Of a DNA stretch of 64,000 nucleotides, positions 1,269 through 64,000 are shown one piece after another. Source of the DNA: Thuidium tamariscinum (Eukaryota > Streptophyta > Bryopsida > Hypnales > Thuidiaceae); contig OX344758.2 of NCBI GenBank assembly GCA_947034885.2, forward strand, positions 22,657,067 through 22,721,066, in the 5' to 3' direction. The position numbers and the translations under genes were made by a program. Numbering within the stretch: the stretch's first letter is position 1; every line of letters begins with the position of its first letter. The notes below the pieces were generated by a model that did not search any database, was not told where the DNA came from, and saw only the letters and a program-made list of their open reading frames with translations.

Positions 1269-2668
1269 CAGTGGGGGACCAATCAAAATGTCGTTTTCGA
1301 ATTCGTAGTGAGAAAAATTTCAGTTCTGCCAAGTTTGAAAGCCTCCAAAGAGCTCAAAAATTGGTATTTTACCACGAAATTTTTATCATAGCATTATCTT
1401 TAAGTTAATTATATTTATGCCAAAATTTTAAGGCCAAAATATTCACCAAAAAAAAGTTATTCAAAATCTACTAACATAGGTAGTGGTGAGAAACATTTCA
1501 CTACTTTCAACTTTGACACCTTCCTAAGGATTGAGTTTTTTTTCTTTTGCCATGAAATTTTTGTCATGAAACAATCTCTGTGTTTTTAATAATTATTAAA
1601 AATTTCAAGGTAAAGAAGATTTTTTTTAAGAAGATATTTGAAATCTCTCAACAAGTGTAGTTTTGAGAAAATTTTCACAATTGCCAACTTTGACACCCTC
1701 CCAAGGGTTGAAAAATTGGTTTCTTACCATGAATGTTTTTTTGTGAAGTCATCTATATATTGATAATATTTGATACAAATTTCAAATTTAAATGAACTAC
1801 CAAAAAAAAGATATACAAAATCTCCCAACATGTGTAGTTGTGAGGAGGAGTTTTTGAGCCCTTAGTATTGTGTTATTTTGTGGAGCAAAGTTTGATACAA
1901 ATGTAAGAACTCAACCTCACAACTACACATGTTGAGAGATTTTGAATATCTTTTTTTAGGTAAGTGTTTTGAACTTGAAATTCAGATCATATATTATCAA
2001 CATAAAGTTGATCTTATTCAAAAAATTTCATGTTAAATAGACAAATTTTCAGCCCTTGGGAGGGTGTCAAAGTCGGCAATAGTGAAAATTTTCTCACAAC
2101 TACACATGTTGGGAGATTTTGTATATCTTTTTTTTGGACAATTAATTTATATTTGAAATTTGTATCAAATATTATCAACATAGAGATGACTTCACAAAAA
2201 GAACTTCATGGTAAGAAACCAATTTTTCAGCCCTTGGGAGGGTGTCAAAGTTGGCAATTGTGAAAATTTTCTCAAAACTACACTTGTTGAGAGATTTCAA
2301 ATATCTTATTAAAAAAAATTGTTTTTACCTTGAAATTTTTTATACTTATTAAAAACATAGAGATTGTTTCATGATAAAAATTTCATGGCAAAAGAAAAAA
2401 AACTCAATCCTTAGGAAGGTGTCAAAGTTGAAAGTAGTGAAATGTTTCTCACCACTACCCATGTTAGTAGATTTTGAATAAATTTTTTTCGGTGAATCTT
2501 TTGGCCTTGAAATTTGGCACACATATAATTAACTTAAAGATGATGTTGTGATAAAAATTTTGTGGTAAAATACCAATTTTTGAGCTCTCGGGAGGCTTTC
2601 AAAGTTGGTAAAACTGAAATTTTTCTCACTACGGATTCGAAAACGACATTTTGATTGGTACCCCACTA
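1269..2668. mobile_element. Fold-back element, copy 1 (1,400 bp)
   Basis: The whole element is one inverted repeat centred near 1900. Ends read CAGTGGGGGACCAATCAAAA and, inverted, TAGTGGGGTACCAATCAAAA, flanked by TA on both sides (1267-1268, 2669-2670). Each arm is itself about four tandem units of roughly 175 bp, each with CAACTTTGACACC and a tail of the type aaatctcccaacatgtgtag. The TA target and CAGTGGG ends resemble Tc1/mariner-type elements. No coding capacity. Confidence 0.88.
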
Positions 2669-8144: not shown

Positions 8145-9530
8145 CAGTGGGGTACCAATCAAAATGACGTTTTCGAATTCGCAGTGAGAAAAATTTCAGT
8201 ACTACCAACTTTGAAAGCCTCTCAAGAGCTCAAAAATTGGTATTTTACCACGGCACCATCTTTACGTTAATTATATGTATGCCAAATTTCAAGGTCAAAA
8301 GATTCACCAAAAAGAAGTTATTCAAAATCTCCCAACATGGGTAGTGGTGAAAAACTTTTTGCTACTTTCAACTTTGACACCTTCCTAAGGATTGATTTTT
8401 TTCCTTTTGCCATGAAATTTTTGTCACAAAACAATATCTATGTTTTTAATATGCATAAAAAATTTCAAGGTAAAAAAATGTTTTTTTAAGAAGATATTTG
8501 AAATCTCCCAAGAGGTGTAGTTTTGAGAAAATTTTCACAATTACCAACTTTGACACCCTCCCAAGGGCTTAAAAATTAGTTTCTTACCATGAAGTTTTTT
8601 TTGTGAAGTCATCTCTATGTTGATAATATGTGCTACAAATTTCAAGTTCAAATAAATTACCAATAAAAAGATATACAAAATCTCCCAACATGTATAGTTG
8701 TGAGAAAATTTTCACTATTGCCAACTTTGACACTCTCCCAAGGGTTGAGAATTTGTCTATTTAACATGAAATGTTTTGAATAAGATCAAATTTATGTTGA
8801 ATATATATATATATTCTGAATTTCAAGTTCAAAACACTTACCTAAAAAAAGATATTCAAAATCTCTCAACATGTGTAGTTGTGAGGTTGAGTTCTTACAT
8901 TCGTGTCAAACTTTGCTCCACAAAATAACACTATACTAAGGGCTCAAAAACTCCTCTTCTCAACTACACATGTTGGGAGATTTTGTATATCTTTTTCTTG
9001 GTAATTCATTTGAACTTGAAATTTATAGCACATATTATCAATATAGAGATGACTTCACAAAAAAAACTTCATGGTAAGAAACTAATTTTTTAGCCCTTGG
9101 GAGGGTGTCAAAGTTGGCAATTGTGAAAATTTTCTCAAAACTACACTTGTTGAGAGATTTCAAATATCTTCTTAAAAAAAAATTTCTTTACCTTGAAATT
9201 TTTTATACTTATTAAAAACACAAATATTGTTTCATGACAAAAATTTCATGGCAAAAGAAAAAAAACCAATCCTTAGGAAGGTGTCAAAGTTGAAAGTAGT
9301 GAAATGTTTCTCACCACTACCCATGTTAGTAGATTTTGAATAACTTTTTTTTGGTGAATCTTTTGGCCTTAAAATTTGGCATACAGATAACTAACTTGAA
9401 GATGGTTCCGTGGTTAAAATTTTGTGGTAAAATACCAATTTTTGAGCTCTTGGGAGGCTTTCAAAGTTGGTAGTATTGAAATTTTTCTCATTGCGAATTC
9501 GAAAACGACATTTTGATTGGTACCCCACTG
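8145..9530. mobile_element. Fold-back element, copy 2 (1,386 bp)
   Basis: Same structure as the copy at 1269-2668. Ends read CAGTGGGGTACCAATCAAAA on both strands, with TA on both sides (TGTA|CAGTGG and CCACTG|TACA). The centre lies near 8910. Arms are tandem units with CAACTTTGACAC and CCCAAGGG. The perfect outer ends suggest a younger copy than the first. Confidence 0.9.
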
Positions 9531-13437: not shown

Positions 13438-16400
13438 CTACACTGAATTGTTGGACACATATTCGTTAAGGTTATCTACATCACCACGGTCTAAGGTATA
13501 TATATGCAAATCTGGATTATATGTGAGAGTTACATTAGTGATAATGGAGTCAAGGCCAATCCATTTTGAATCACTTAGATCATACCTGAATTTATACTGT
13601 CTAGGTGCACGGGTGTAATAATGCATCATAATTTGAATGGAGGAGGAGTTTTTGCAAGGAGGTACGTTACGGTTTGCCAAATCCACTGGCTGCTTCGATG
13701 ATCCCCATGAGCTACTACCTGCATGCCTCCGCATTTTTTGGATACGCCCTACCCACCATGTTCTCTCATCCACACCTTGCAATACAGAAGCTGTCATACC
13801 AGATTTTGCAGCTCGTGATCTCCCCCTCCTCTTTGCTACAGTTAGAGTAGACGGCTGTGTAACAGTTGAGCGCTGCACAAAAAAAAATCCAACATCCGAC
13901 CCAATTCCAACAAGATAGGTATTTGGGCACTGCGCAGCACTAAGATATGCATCACTGTTATTGAAATACAAGGAGTTCTTCACGCGAGTTAATCTGTCCT
14001 TTGACAAAAAGGGATTACCGTTCAGTTGCCCAACCAAAGTGGACTTGAAGATTTTGTGGCCATCGAACTCCACAAAAGCTTCCACTTTTGCCGACACCGG
14101 AATGGAAGAAACATGTTCCTTGTGGTTGCTCAACATGTCAGAAATGACATCACGAGTTTCACTTTCTAATACTGTAATGGCTGGGACTCCATCATCCACT
14201 ACATCTTCCTCAGATTCCGTGACTCCAAGCTCACTTGCCTCGGCACGACGTTGCAATTCCTGCTCTTTCTGCTGTAAATCTTCACGCAATACTTCCATGT
14301 CACCATCCTCACCGCACACAGGTTTGGTGGAAGGTGAAAACGCAAATGATTTCTTGTCAGCTCGCTCAGCAATCCAAGGTTTTTCAAACCAGACCTTCTG
14401 CTTCGCAGTGGCATTAGGATTTGGAGCCATGTTTAGACTATTTATCAACTTCTGAGCATCTTTGAGTCCCTCTTTCAAGGCTTCAATGACAAGATCATTG
14501 GTTGCTACTGGAGTGTAGTCTCTGAGATCAGGTTCAATTTCATTGTCCTGCAATTCATGTAACTTCCGCCAAATGTTGTTCATCTTATTGTGTGCCCTAC
14601 CAAACTTAATCCCGTTTCCTCCATACTCAATTTGGAACAGATGGTTCACTATGTTTGTACAACTTACCAATTCATGAAAATCGTAAGCCCTCTCCATGCC
14701 TACCATTCCTCCAACCTTAGAGAAAAATATCTCACAAGAGTCACTACCCGTTAGATGGAATGGTACAGGCAAATGAGGGTATTCATCACGGAAATGGCAA
14801 ATAAGCAGAACAATGAAATGACAAGACAATTGTATGTCTATGAAACATTGTTGGCTAACAAAATTCACTTTAGAATTTATAGGTTCAATATTCCCTATTA
14901 CTCCATGGTTACCATGCTTCATCCATAATTTCCAGATTCGGAAGAAGAAAGACACTTTCACAGCTTTCACTATCCGGGCACGCACGTCATGCCGTGGAGA
15001 CAAGAATATGTCTATGTAATCTGCACAAATCTCCAAATATAGCTTAGTACCAAGGGTGTGTTCACGATGAACATCAGTAGACAAACGAAGGGACCGTAGG
15101 CAATCTCGAATCTTCTGAGAACACAATCTCTGTGCACTAGCCTAATTATAGTGGTCCTTCCTGTCAAAATCCTCTTGAAGTAAACCATGTTCATCAACTG
15201 TGAAACGGTTGAAGACTTGGCATATATGTTGGTGGAGTGCTAAATCACCAACTAATCTCAAAGTGCGGACATTGCTGTCAATAGGGTTCAACAATTTCTT
15301 ACCATTGTGAATATAATCCTGATCATGCAACCCTGTAGCTTCACCATTTACATTCAAAGCTGAAGTGAAAACCCAACCCTCCCAATCAACAGTTAATCTC
15401 AGCCCCTACAAACCTTTGAAATCTTGAAGCATTAACTGCCTTCTGCGTGAGTCACCATCACTCGCATGTCCAATGATAGGACCCACAACAGAGTGGCAAT
15501 GAGTCATCCACAAGTCGTTAATCCTATCCCACTGTTGTCTTACCCATTGTGAATCAAAACAACCACAAGTACAACAAGCAACAAGCACTAGTCTTGGCAA
15601 TTTCTCATGCAATGGATTCACAACAATTACTCTTGCAAAGCCACCTACCTTGTCCAACCTAAAAGACTCTACCATCTTCTTGTAACCAACATCCTGAACT
15701 CCTACAGTTGGCTTATAATGCGGGATACAGACATGTGACTCTTTTGGTCCACAGAAGCCTACCATAGTATCCGACCTGGCCTCCCACGAAACTCTCCCCC
15801 TCACCTTCGTTTCATCCTCAGCAAGTATAACCGGGATAGGTCCACTGATACCGTGCATAGCCTTAGCATCAATGTATATACTTGCAATGGACTTGAAGAT
15901 GTCTGCATGTTCCCCCGCTATGAACTGAACCCCTTTCCTACATTCCCGATGTATTGTATCATAACCAGGCTCTGCAAAATTTAAGGCAAATAGATCACAG
16001 AGACGGCGCCCCCCATAGATCCGCATAGCTCGTGAAAAACATTTCGTATTCTCATTGTAACGATTCCCACGATCATCCCTATTCAAATTGGTTGCCACGT
16101 CCTTCATGAAGTCCCACAGTCCAGGCTTGCCTCCAAATGCACTTGTCCTGTGGGCACTTATGATATCATTACAGAATTTTGTTAGATTGTTATCAGATGC
16201 AGCATTCATGGCACTTTCACGCATGGTTGGTCTTTTTACCTTTAGTTGCACAATTCTCATTCTAACGTGCTAGTAGTGCAATTTTTCTAGGCGACACTTC
16301 CTAGATAGTTGTCTTGCAAATTTGGACACTTGAAATACAGATAGGTACCCTAAGCGGATCCCTCCAGCAGTGGTTCTAGGCCCCCTCTTGACCAATGCTT

Positions 16401-17871
16401 GGTCCTCTCTCTGAATTCTCATTTTGAAATCATTCTGACGGGGAATCTGAGTACACAAAGGGCAAGTCAGATTTGGGAACGGCTCTAAAGACATGGACAG
16501 ACGGGTGCACTGTCTATGCCTAAACGCCCCACTCACTTGAACCACATCATTTTAAACTTGAACTGAAGCAAACAAATGTGGTTTAGGATACCATTCAATA
16601 CTAGGATGAAGATTGTTTAGTAACGCAGAAACAACAGACATATTGCCCCCATACTCAACAAATGGACCCCTAAATCCATAACACATCAACGCAGCCACAA
16701 TTTCTTTATCTACAGTTTGGGATATACCTTCCACAGTACTTGATGTGCCCCACATCAACCATGTATGAAGGTCACCTTGATTGGAGCGAGTACTCGTGGT
16801 GCTAGATTTACTTGGGCGCCCTGGTCGTCCTGTTCTTGCTGGCTCCTTTTGCAACTTCATTGCATCCTGAACAACCTTCTTATGCTTTGGACCATTCAAA
16901 TGATTTTCCAAGTTTGCCTCCAAGTTCTTCTTCAATGGACAAAGGACCATGAAGTCCCGACAGTATTGGTACTTCACCTTAAACCAATAGCACCTGGTGT
17001 CCTGTACTTCCAAATTCCCGAGAATTGAAAAATGTTTGTGCTCGTCTGGGAGAGTAACATTCACTGACTGGAGGATGGCAACTCCCTCGGCAATCATGCG
17101 TTTGTGATCTTTTGGGGATAGAATAACTGTCCTTCCGTTCTTCGACTCTGATTGTGGATGGTTGTCAAAGTCAATCCCCTTTGCAGCACAAAAATTCCTC
17201 ACATGGCCATCACTTATGATGTGAGACCTGCGGAAATTGTTGAACAAATTATCAATTTGCGCCTTTGTGTGATCCTTGCTATCACCTCCACAATCTTTTT
17301 TGCATTCTCTGCACCACAATTTTACAACTCCATTCCCATTTAAGTCAAAAGTCTTCAACCACTAGTTGTGGTCGGACATAGCAACCCTCTTCAGTTGTGC
17401 TCGCATTTTCTTTGCCTGTTCCAAATATCGATCCATGATTTCCGTAGACAAAAGAACTGATTTGAAAGGGATGTCCTGAACCTCGCTGTAATCTCCACTG
17501 CCGCTCACCCTGGATGAGCCAACAATCAGCATGATTGGATCCGGTGTTGGCACTTGAACTTCAACAGAATCTTGTACAGCATCCACAAGCTCCTCAGTGG
17601 GCAAAGCGGAAGCTCCATTGTGAAGTCGACGTCGCTTGTGTCCTTCATTGTCTCCTTCAACAAGCCAAATGACATGCACCTCTGCAGAGATGCCATTCAA
17701 TCGCTCCAGCTTCTTCCTAACGCGTCGCTTGTCTTCAGCGTCCCAGAAATGGAATGGCCACTTAAGAATGTCGTTGATTTCCAGAGTAATCCGAAGTGCC
17801 TCCAATGTCAAAGCACCTCTGATGTCAACTTTTCCAAAGTACTCTGGATCTGCACCCTCTTCTTCCAATGT
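13438..17871 (-). pseudogene. Transposase-like reading frame of 1,478 codons broken by five in-frame stops
   Basis: One frame runs from a 3' splice site (attgtag, ending about 17872) to the TAG at 13438 with no frameshift. It is interrupted only at 17362 (TAG), 16552 (TAA), 16270 (TAG), 15406 (TAG) and 15142 (TAG). Visible parts in order: a Cys-rich segment at codons 187-228; a C-x6-C-x12-H-x5-H zinc finger at codons 304-330; CPLC at 470-473; a core with ILAEDETKVRGRVSWE (Asp at codon 686), NPLHEKLPRLVLV and GHASDGDSRRRQLM (Asp at 805 and 807), resembling RNase-H-like DDE transposases; IHNGKKLLNPID; and a C-terminal WWVGRIQKMRR module. The motif order recalls P-element/THAP9-like enzymes, but I cannot assign a superfamily. 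An upstream first exon must exist and was not identified. As it stands it cannot give a full protein unless the stops are bypassed. Confidence 0.78.
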
Positions 17872-39555: not shown

Positions 39556-42090
39556 CTAGCATTCCTCATCAGACCAGCCATCATAGATCTTCAAGTCTGC
39601 GTCTTCAACCAACTCGGATTGCACGTCCATCATACAATCATCTGCCGCAGAGCCTCTGATACCATCATGTTCCCTTGTTGGAACAAACATCTGGTCAGGG
39701 TCCTCGTCATCCTCCCCCTTCGGAGGATCGTACTCGTGTAACAAGCGGCGCCATTTCCGAATCTGGCCATCCCAGCTCCGTTTACTGCACACCTGTCTTA
39801 TGTCAGGTGTTCGGGGATGCACTTTGGTTCGCTGGTACCTACAAGAAAAGTAGGAAGGATGATTAACTCATGGTTAGCTCCATCAATTAAACCCTGCAAG
39901 AAATTGGATCCTTTTTCTGAGCTGCAAATATACAATTTGAATCACAGAACCTACACTCAACCGAAGTACAGAAAAGATTCTCATGCTTGTTAAATTGCTT
40001 CCTCTGAATTTTTTTGGAAAAGTTCGTTCACCTTGGAACCATCTCTGTGTATCTTTCATAGCCCAGCGTATTCTTTCCATAATCAATTTGCTTCTGCCGT
40101 TGGCAAAGTCGATGAGGGTCTGATTCAACTGGTTTTACCGGTATACCTGCAAAAAAAGAGTTAATGTGGAACACAAACCTACATTAGCACCAAAAACACT
40201 CTTTGTCGTCGACATTGAAATGACTCCCAAGGGATATGAGAGTCACATTTATATATATTAGGAAAGGGAAAAACAGAAACTCATACTATTTCCTTATAGT
40301 ACGTCTCTTTCCGAGGAAGCAAGAGGTTGCGCCAAATACGAAAATACTCCATTGCAAGCTTTTAGGGTGCAAGCTTGAATAGACGGCCCTCGCTGCCAAT
40401 TCCTCGGCTAGGGCTCCAGACTCAAAATGCTTGCTCCGCAATCCCACTCAAACAAACCCCCGTTGCAAACGTGCACAGAATAACAAATAATAAAACTTCC
40501 AGTTGCGGGCAAGCCAAACCCTGAGCGCACGAATGGAGCAGAAGAAATTGAGGGTTTTCCAATCCGGACCTCAGAACCACTTGCAAACACCCTAAAATTT
40601 CCCGGATGTTATTTCCTATACTCACGACCTCCATTACAAACAACCCTATGTTCCGACACGATAACACATGTTGCGCTCCGGGTTGCCTCAACATGGAAAT
40701 CGAGGCTCTCCAGGCCGGCATGTAGAAAACCAAAACTGGGTCTTCCGGAGAAGGCCTTGGAAGAGTTCGCTTATGCCCACATTGACTCCGGAGAAAGGAC
40801 GCTATGAATAGTTCCCCAAACCCTCATCACCACCATGGCAAACGAAAACGATTTTGAGACGCTAGGCCACACCGACATGGTGAAAAAACAAACAGGATGA
40901 GGTCAAAGAAGGCAAAATTACATACCGAGAGGAGCTTTTGTAACAGTGAACTTATGGCTGTAGTCCACAACCGTCACGGACTTGGGCTGCTGAGCTGTGG
41001 TAGCCATGCTCTGTTGTTGTAGAAGTTGTAGTTGTTGCTGTTTCTGCAACTCTTGTTTCTGCAACGCTTGTTTCTGCAACTCCTTCTGCAAATCACGCTC
41101 CAAATCTCGCTCCTTCTCCGCCCAGCGCTCTCGCCGTCTCTCAGCCTCGGTGTCACTCTCACTCCCCTTGTGGCTCCCAACGGCGGCGCCAATCCTCAAG
41201 CGTTGGGCAACATCAGAGGGCGGAAGGGGCGGTACCTTCTTCCTAACCTCAGATCTCTCCGACGCGCAGCTCAAATCGAAGTCCACTCTCCGAACGCGCA
41301 CTTTCACATCAAAACCTAGCTCGTGGCCATCGCCATCGCCATCGTAACCCTTGTTCTCTCTGTTCGTCACAAGAGGTCGAGCTCTGCGATTCAGAGCCTC
41401 CCGCAAGTCCACAGTGATGTTCGGCCTGGGGTTGGAATCTTCTAAGAAAAGACCACTGTCGTCTTCGTCGTCTTCTTCGTCTTCGTCATAAAACTCCCCC
41501 TCCTCTCTAACCCTAACCTCGAACCGCCCCGCCGTGCCTGGCAGCCTTCTTGCCATTTGCTGATGCTCGCGCACCCTCTCATACATGTCGATGTTCATGG
41601 AGATCATGCGATGCTCAGGCTCGAATTTGCGCTTGCTCGCCGCCCCGGCCTCCATGATCATGGTCTGGGATGATGCGGTCCCACCATCCTTAGTGACCAC
41701 ATCCAATCCATGTCCTCCATCATGCAACCGGCTCTTCAACGTGATCATGCGGTGCCCCGGAGGATTGTTCAAGATCTTCTTCGGATTCAAACTCTTCTTG
41801 GGCGAGGGGAGTCGGCGGATGAGCGTCTGCAGCGGTCTCCTCACGGGAGAGGCGTCATAGCGAGGCTCTGCCCACTTGATGAGGCTCCGGCCGTTGCTGG
41901 AAGTGTCATCGGAGCGCGTCTTGATGCGCTTCCAATGGGATTGCCGGTCTCTGCTGTCATCCTCCTCATCCGAAGAATAGACGGGGATGTAAGATAACGG
42001 ATGGTGGGGTGCTGCATCAGCTTTCTTCGGAGACTGGAATGCAGTCTCTGAAGGGGTTGGCTGGTCATGTGACGAATCGATCGTCGTCAT
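39556..42090 (-). CDS. SLBP: Histone RNA hairpin-binding protein (stem-loop-binding protein), 3 coding exons, 520 aa
   Basis: Exons read 42090-40926, 40146-40032 and 39838-39556. Donors are gtatgt and gtgaac, acceptors ttttgcag and cttgtag, and the phases join without a stop. Residues about 398-466 form the SLBP RNA-binding domain: DPHRLCQRQKQIDYGKNT, then GYERYTEMVPR, then SKRSWDGQIRKW and HEYDPP, matching the family order. In animals this domain grips the 3' stem-loop of replication-dependent histone mRNA and drives its processing and translation. The usual TPNK motif reads TPDI here (T437). Residues 1-388 are long, charged and probably disordered, with an acidic DED/EDD run near 205-215 and a Q/K-rich QKQ repeat near 345-370. 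The C-terminal 54 residues are acidic. The ATG opens exon 1 and TAG closes exon 3. The domain call is from motif recognition and splice consistency; the exact N-terminus and any extra UTR exon are inferred. Confidence 0.93.
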
Positions 42091-51965: not shown

Positions 51966-52416
<451 letters not shown>

Positions 52417-63428: not shown

Positions 63429-64000
63429 ATTTTTATTTTTTTACAAGTCAATAAAAACCATAATTTTGACCAATCAAAAAAAATTTTAAATCATAAAAAT
63501 AGAAATTGTATTTTTGGTGAATTTTTGAAGTTATACCTTCAAAATTCATTTGAAGAGAATCTATAAATATTTTTTAAATTTTGATCATATGTATACTTTC
63601 TAATTTTTGTACTTTACATTATCTTCTTTGATGCTAACTTCAAAAAAGTTATAAAGCTTATATTTTATAACACATTTGTATTTTGTCTTAATCCCTTGGG
63701 CTTTTAGAGGTTGAATATATTGCATTTTTCTATAAATCAATAAAAAACACAATTTTGACCAATCAAAAAAAATTTCAAATCCTAAAAATAGAAATTGTAT
63801 TTTTGGTGAATTTTTGAAGTTATATCTTCAAAATTCATTTAAAAATAATCTAAAAACTTTTTTTTTACTTTGACTGTATGGATACTTTCTACTTGTTGTG
63901 CTTTACATTATCTTCTTTGATACTAACTTCAAAAAAGTTGTAATTCTTATATTTTATAGCACATTTGTGTTTTGTCCTAACCCCTTGGGCTTTTAGGGGT
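63429..64000. repeat. 289-bp tandem repeat running out of the window
   Basis: Anchors ctttacattatcttctttga at 63612 and 63901, and ttttgaccaatcaaaaaaaa at 63460 and 63749, give a period of 289. At least two units are present; the second ends with ccccttgggcttttaggggt at the window edge, so the true array length is unknown. Confidence 0.85.

What the first reader, a model, noticed from the sequence alone, without database searches (positions are those of the whole stretch)
39556..42090. A full SLBP gene in what looks like a land plant
Seen: a three-exon gene whose domain reads DPHRLCQRQKQIDYGKNT ... SKRSWDGQIRKW. Known: SLBP serves non-polyadenylated, stem-loop-ended histone mRNAs in animals and some algae, while flowering-plant histone mRNAs are polyadenylated. 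Inferred: this lineage may keep stem-loop histone processing, or has put SLBP to another RNA target.
Basis: partly seen in the sequence, partly recalled or inferred. Interest (0 to 1): 0.85.

Follow-up and report, generated by a model that had tools for sequence, protein, structure and literature searches.

The report
Histone stem-loop system in land plant
A land-plant genome, probably a moss, carries an intact gene for the protein that binds stem-loop ends of histone messages, and 8 of the 9 histone H4 genes checked have such a stem-loop just after the stop codon, although plants are generally thought to lack this system.

Summary
Window 42090-39556 (minus strand) holds a three-exon gene with GT-AG introns, 520 aa, and one SLBP_RNA_bind domain (PF15247, E 1.4e-32), 42/75 identical to Drosophila and 38/75 to human SLBP. 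It is the only such gene found in its 363-Mb genome. A plant-type eS30 gene 10 kb away argues against animal contamination.

The decisive check was in the same genome. Nine H4 genes were found. Eight of nine carry a 6-bp-stem, 4-nt-loop hairpin, GGTGTT-NNNN-AAYACC, 29-45 nt after the stop; six of these eight have [AG]TCAAGTC about 18 nt further on. The animal stem-loop consensus itself occurs only at chance level (98 against 97 control hits). So this lineage seems to keep SLBP-based histone 3'-end processing with its own stem-loop and a candidate U7-type downstream element.

Not shown: RNA evidence, binding, a U7 RNA, or other core histones (the genome search was mostly unreachable). Plant origin is well supported; moss is inference. 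No listed open-access title describes a land-plant SLBP; one potato paper using the word SLBP was not opened.

The parts
40926..42090 (-). SLBP gene, coding exon 1 (388 codons plus 1 nt): long N-terminal region without a Pfam match, acidic and Gln-rich stretches
40147..40925 (-). intron 1, 779 nt, GTATGT...TTTGCAG
40032..40146 (-). SLBP gene, coding exon 2: first half of the RNA-binding domain (ESDPHRLCQRQKQIDYGKNTLGYERYTEMVP)
39839..40031 (-). intron 2, 193 nt, GTGAAC...CTTGTAG
39556..39838 (-). SLBP gene, coding exon 3: second half of the RNA-binding domain (TPDI...SKRSWDGQIRKW) and acidic C-terminal tail, stop TAG
40032..40120 (-). RNA-binding domain PF15247, part in exon 2 (protein residues from 398)
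   Evidence: coordinates derived by hand
39724..39838 (-). RNA-binding domain PF15247, part in exon 3 (to residue 465)
   Evidence: coordinates derived by hand
51966..52415 (-). stand-alone plant-type ribosomal protein eS30 gene (exons read as 52415-52412, 52249-52112, 52012-51966): marker of the host lineage, not part of the SLBP system
   Evidence: exon limits read by eye

Best explanation
The gene encodes a genuine stem-loop binding protein that binds a 16-nt hairpin in histone pre-mRNA and mRNA (GGUGUU-NNNN-AAYACC, then usually ACC). As in animals and volvocine algae, it would direct cleavage a few bases after the hairpin, so that these histone mRNAs end in the stem-loop instead of poly(A). 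The shared [AG]TCAAGTC element about 18 nt after the hairpin would be the landing site of a U7-like snRNP. Shown: the gene, its domain, the hairpins and the downstream element at H4 genes. Inferred: binding, cleavage, lack of poly(A), a U7-like partner, and extension to H3, H2A and H2B.
For: Intact gene, the only one found, with the full domain. By alignment, the arginine that contacts G7 of the stem (Arg181 in human; PMC10388802, passages) is kept in SKRSWD, and RQKQIDYGKNT is kept. 8 of 9 H4 3' regions have the hairpin at 29-45 nt after the stop; 40-nt pieces around it fold in 8 of 8 as a stem of at least 6 bp with a 4-nt loop, -6.8 to -9.1 kcal/mol, z -1.69 to -4.33. One stem change, C to T in L064, keeps a G-U pair, and the loop varies. 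Relative to the animal consensus the fourth stem pair is swapped from Y-R to G-C (G-U in L064), so pairing is kept where sequence is not. [AG]TCAAGTC stands within 50 nt after the hairpin in 6 of 8, reached in 0 of 5000 shuffles.
Against: No RNA data, so stem-loop ends are not shown. Only H4 was examined. One of the nine H4 genes lacks the hairpin (L059). RF00032 gave no match over its cut-off (best 27.1 bits; 75 of 89,637 candidates scored) and RF00066 (U7) gave none (65 of 142,314 scored; nothing rang in the controls either). The hairpins differ from the animal consensus at 3 (seven genes) or 4 (L067) of 16 positions, a distance that 338 of 1800 shuffled 3' regions also reached or beat at 3, so likeness to the animal sequence alone is not evidence; the shared place and pairing are. 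The TPNK motif reads TPDI. The exact hairpin and downstream patterns were chosen after seeing the nine sequences, and the nine genes are paralogues.
Confidence: 0.8

Rival explanations
1. SLBP and the hairpin are kept, but as a stability or translation device: the mRNAs are cleaved and polyadenylated downstream by the ordinary machinery, and the hairpin plus SLBP act inside the 3' UTR.
For: [quoted passage not shown] No U7 candidate was found (inconclusive).
Against: The hairpin sits 29-45 nt after the stop with a second conserved element at a nearly fixed distance behind it, the layout expected of processing signals. In the first 500 nt after the stop, 7 of 9 genes have none of the five A-rich hexamers tried, though plant poly(A) signals are loose and this is weak.
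Confidence: 0.13
2. SLBP has been turned to another RNA target, unrelated to histones.
For: The animal stem-loop consensus is at chance level in this genome (98 against 97 control matches), and none of those 98 places lies at one of the nine H4 genes.
Against: A hairpin of the same geometry, in this lineage's own version, stands at 8 of 9 H4 genes.
Confidence: 0.04
3. The gene is contamination from an alga or animal, or a decayed relic.
Against: It lies 22.7 Mb into a 24.3-Mb contig, about 10 kb from a plant-type eS30 gene, with an open frame and clean splice sites.
Confidence: 0.02

Closest known systems
Metazoan SLBP and histone mRNA stem-loop (human SLBP 4L8R/4QOZ; Drosophila 4TUX, 4TV0, 4TUW)
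   Same: RNA-binding domain over its whole length; Arg181 equivalent; hairpin of 6 bp and 4 nt just after the stop codon; usually ACC after the stem; a second element downstream
   Different: TPNK reads TPDI; fourth stem pair G-C (once G-U) instead of Y-R; first loop base A, G or C instead of U; downstream element [AG]TCAAGTC; N-terminal region of 388 aa without a Pfam match. The animal RNA features are recalled
Volvox and Chlamydomonas histone genes with 3' stem-loops (Muller 1990, Fabry 1995; known to me here only through PMC6827988 passages)
   Same: green lineage, stem-loop histone 3' ends
   Different: chlorophyte algae; their hairpin sequences and SLBPs were not compared here
Flowering-plant histone genes
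   Same: the nine H4 proteins have the usual C-terminal end
   Different: according to PMC6827988 (passages), plant histone mRNAs are polyadenylated without the stem-loop and BLAST found no promising SLBP candidate in Solanaceae

Membership tests
SLBP (PF15247) | SLBP RNA-binding domain over the family cut-off | tested here: met
   111.9 bits, cut-off 27, profile 2-70 of 70
SLBP (PF15247) | arginine that reads G7 of the stem (human Arg181) | tested here: met
   aligned R in SKRSWD; role from PMC10388802 passages; position counted from Thr171 of TPNK
SLBP (PF15247) | TPNK motif with the phosphorylated threonine | tested here: not met
   TPDI: T and P kept, N and K not. A regulatory motif; I do not count it as defining the family
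SLBP (PF15247) | binds histone mRNA stem-loop | not testable with these tools
   needs a binding assay
Stem-loop histone genes | 6-bp/4-nt hairpin shortly after the stop codon of core histone genes | tested here: met
   8 of 9 H4 genes; H3, H2A, H2B not reached
Stem-loop histone genes | animal consensus GGYYYTTYTNARRRCC (recalled) | tested here: not met
   98 matches against 97 of the control, none at the nine H4 genes; H4 hairpins differ from it at 3 or 4 positions
Stem-loop histone genes | mRNA ends in the stem-loop, without poly(A) | not testable with these tools
   no RNA data
U7-dependent processing | conserved element downstream of the hairpin | tested here: met
   [AG]TCAAGTC in 6 of 8, 0 of 5000 shuffles; pattern chosen after seeing the sequences
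U7-dependent processing | U7 snRNA gene | tested here: inconclusive
   RF00066 no match, 65 of 142,314 candidates scored, controls silent

The most novel reading that the evidence does not exclude
A land-plant lineage keeps a complete replication-dependent histone mRNA system (SLBP, a lineage-specific stem-loop, and a U7-like snRNP that pairs with [AG]TCAAGTC), so its loss in flowering plants was a later event and not a trait of all land plants.
Probability: 0.6. Interest if true: 0.92.

Novelty: new variant of a known kind. Interest (0 to 1): 0.86.

Why it matters
The textbook contrast has animals ending histone mRNAs in a stem-loop and plants ending them in poly(A). A land plant with SLBP and matching hairpins on its H4 genes would date the loss of the system within land plants, give a non-animal system in which to ask what it is for, and offer a concrete bait, the complement of [AG]TCAAGTC, for a plant U7-like snRNA.

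Tried and rejected
Animal-consensus hairpin, genome-wide: chance level. I held loci around 50 of its 98 places (one in L003, thirty in L009-L038, nineteen more fetched); tblastn with H4, H3, H2A and H2B gave no match in the 58 loci then held (38 of them already), and the same tblastn with the SLBP protein found L001 and L002 as it should. The other 48 of 98 were not read. Three matches within 36 kb on C4 looked like a histone cluster but gave no histone match; a blastn of these stretches against each other in the same script printed nothing, and I did not verify that it ran. RF00032 gave six matches below its cut-off, and a motif search of L001-L008 found no histone there. U7. Animal consensus in the window: none. 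SLBP relatives in viral contigs and prokaryote genomes: none confirmed. Rfam (gathering scores) and tRNA scans of the window were empty.

Literature: none of the titles listed describes a land-plant SLBP. Limits: searches found no paper; one search listed 15 of 997, none holding the SLBP term; one search listed 10 of 13. Passages were seen in PMC10885604, PMC5089844, PMC6827988, PMC4442281 and PMC10388802 only. PMC11360750, a potato paper in which the listing counts SLBP seven times, was not opened and could bear on the question. Most subscription papers are not held; four that I wanted were not held. One search was rejected for a sign in a term.

No structure was predicted.

Full report
What is there. 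On the minus strand at 42090-39556 lies a three-exon gene for a 520-aa protein. Both introns are GT-AG and both joins keep the frame. Residues 398-465 match the whole SLBP RNA-binding domain (PF15247, E 1.4e-32), and the only PDB relatives at the threshold are SLBP chains. Over 75 aligned residues it is identical to Drosophila SLBP at 42 and to human SLBP at 38, one human residue being dropped for the human count. RQKQIDYGKNT is kept (human has RQKQINYGKNT) and so is RSWD of the human chain. The human TPNK motif reads TPDI. Arg181, whose contact with G7 of the stem-loop is described as key in PMC10388802 (passages only), is kept. The first exon (388 codons) has no Pfam match; it is open by more than chance (0 of 2000 shuffles), but its function is unknown.

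Whose genome. The window is G000:C10:22657067-22721066 of an assembly of 363,211,507 bases in 19 contigs. The ten contig lengths seen run from 17.5 to 54.2 Mb, and the 98 pattern matches fall on C1 to C11 only, which suggests eleven chromosomes. About 10 kb from the SLBP gene is an eS30 gene (Pfam Ribosomal_S30, 5.4e-26). Its core is 45/46 identical to the best PDB chain, a 62-aa stand-alone eS30; the three best chains score 84-88 bits, and the chains named as FUBI fusions score about 71 or less (60 of 72 rows shown). That the best chains are from flowering plants and that FUBI fusions mark animals is recalled. The gene has no ubiquitin-like part and ends [15 protein letters not shown] by my reading. 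So the contig belongs to the plant lineage. That it is a moss is my inference from genome size and contig number; a streptophyte alga is not strictly excluded. The search found a single SLBP gene (nine candidates scored, two matches, the two domain exons of this gene).

Do histone genes carry the target? The animal consensus hairpin gave 98 matches against 97 for the reversed pattern, that is, chance. None of the 98 lies within 250 kb of one of the nine H4 genes (coordinates, compared by eye). The H4 pattern search gave nine genes and no control match; it needs an exact pattern, so more may exist. All nine encode the same usual H4 end. I read 595-601 nt after each stop codon. A scan of the first 300 nt for hairpins of the animal geometry, 6 bp and 4 nt with at least five Watson-Crick pairs, found ten: in 8 of 9 genes the same hairpin, plus two unrelated ones further down in L063 and L067. 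The shared hairpin is GGTGTT, four loop bases, AACACC (AATACC in L064), starting 36, 36, 29, 36, 36, 45, 39 and 38 nt after the stop in L060 to L067. Shuffled sequences gave 2.6 hairpins of any kind per set of nine. The loops read ATTG, ATTT four times, GCTT, CTTG and CATG. The one stem change keeps a G-U pair. Against the animal consensus the fourth pair is swapped to G-C, so pairing is kept where sequence is not. Seven of eight have ACC directly after the stem. Each of eight 40-nt pieces folds as expected on its own (z -1.69 to -4.33, with 0 to 10 of 200 shuffles folding as well, so single cases range from weak to strong). In the fetched loci and the window together, 684,384 strand-bases with some overlap between loci, the motif does not occur; for a motif this long that is what chance predicts, so eight in nine short regions is far from chance.

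Behind the hairpin stands a second shared element. [AG]TCAAGTC lies within 50 nt after the stem in 6 of 8, reached in 0 of 5000 shuffles. The related word found by the looser pattern starts 33-34 nt from the start of the hairpin in seven of eight (L066 reads TATCGATT; L067 has none). The rest of the 3' sequences looks unrelated by eye, which argues that these two elements are conserved for function and not by recent duplication; I did not quantify this. Both patterns were defined after seeing the sequences. The ninth H4 gene (L059, C1) has neither element, and may be an ordinary polyadenylated copy.

How it probably works. The layout, stop codon, short spacer, hairpin, about 18 nt, conserved element, is that of animal replication-dependent histone genes, where SLBP holds the hairpin and the U7 snRNP pairs with the downstream element to place the cut. 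That knowledge of the animal pathway is recalled, apart from the passages cited. A plant SLBP with its RNA-binding domain intact next to this layout makes retention of the pathway the simplest reading. Binding, cleavage, missing poly(A), a U7-like RNA and the other core histones remain unshown.

What is known. [quoted passage not shown] None of the titles listed by searches describes SLBP in a land plant, but lists were capped, the subscription literature was not searched, and PMC11360750, a potato paper that holds the word SLBP seven times (listing), was not opened. Annotated plant SLBP entries may well exist in protein databases that I could not query.

Verdict. Observation confirmed, interpretation strengthened: a known kind of system, in a lineage where it is generally held to be absent, with its own version of the hairpin and downstream element.

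Noticed in passing
window 52415-51966 (-): Stand-alone plant-type eS30 ribosomal protein gene in three exons.
   Followed up: yes
window 13438-17871 (-): Four long adjacent open frames (566, 287, 269, 169 aa) that look like a transposon gene or a low-copy plant gene; only a sub-threshold zinc-finger match.
   Followed up: partly
L059 (G000:C1:22155880-22156600): One H4 gene without the hairpin or downstream element, possibly a polyadenylated, replication-independent copy.
   Followed up: partly
G000:C4:9469635, 9493252, 9505848 (in L039, L040, L041): Three matches to the animal stem-loop consensus within 36 kb on one strand; no histone match by tblastn. What the stretches are was not settled.
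   Followed up: partly
G000, many contigs: GGTCCTTCTGAGAACC makes up 15 (my count) of the 98 consensus matches, probably part of a dispersed repeat.
   Followed up: no
window 1916-2629, 8284-8885, 63435-64000: Tandem arrays with 177-bp (two arrays) and 289-bp units.
   Followed up: no
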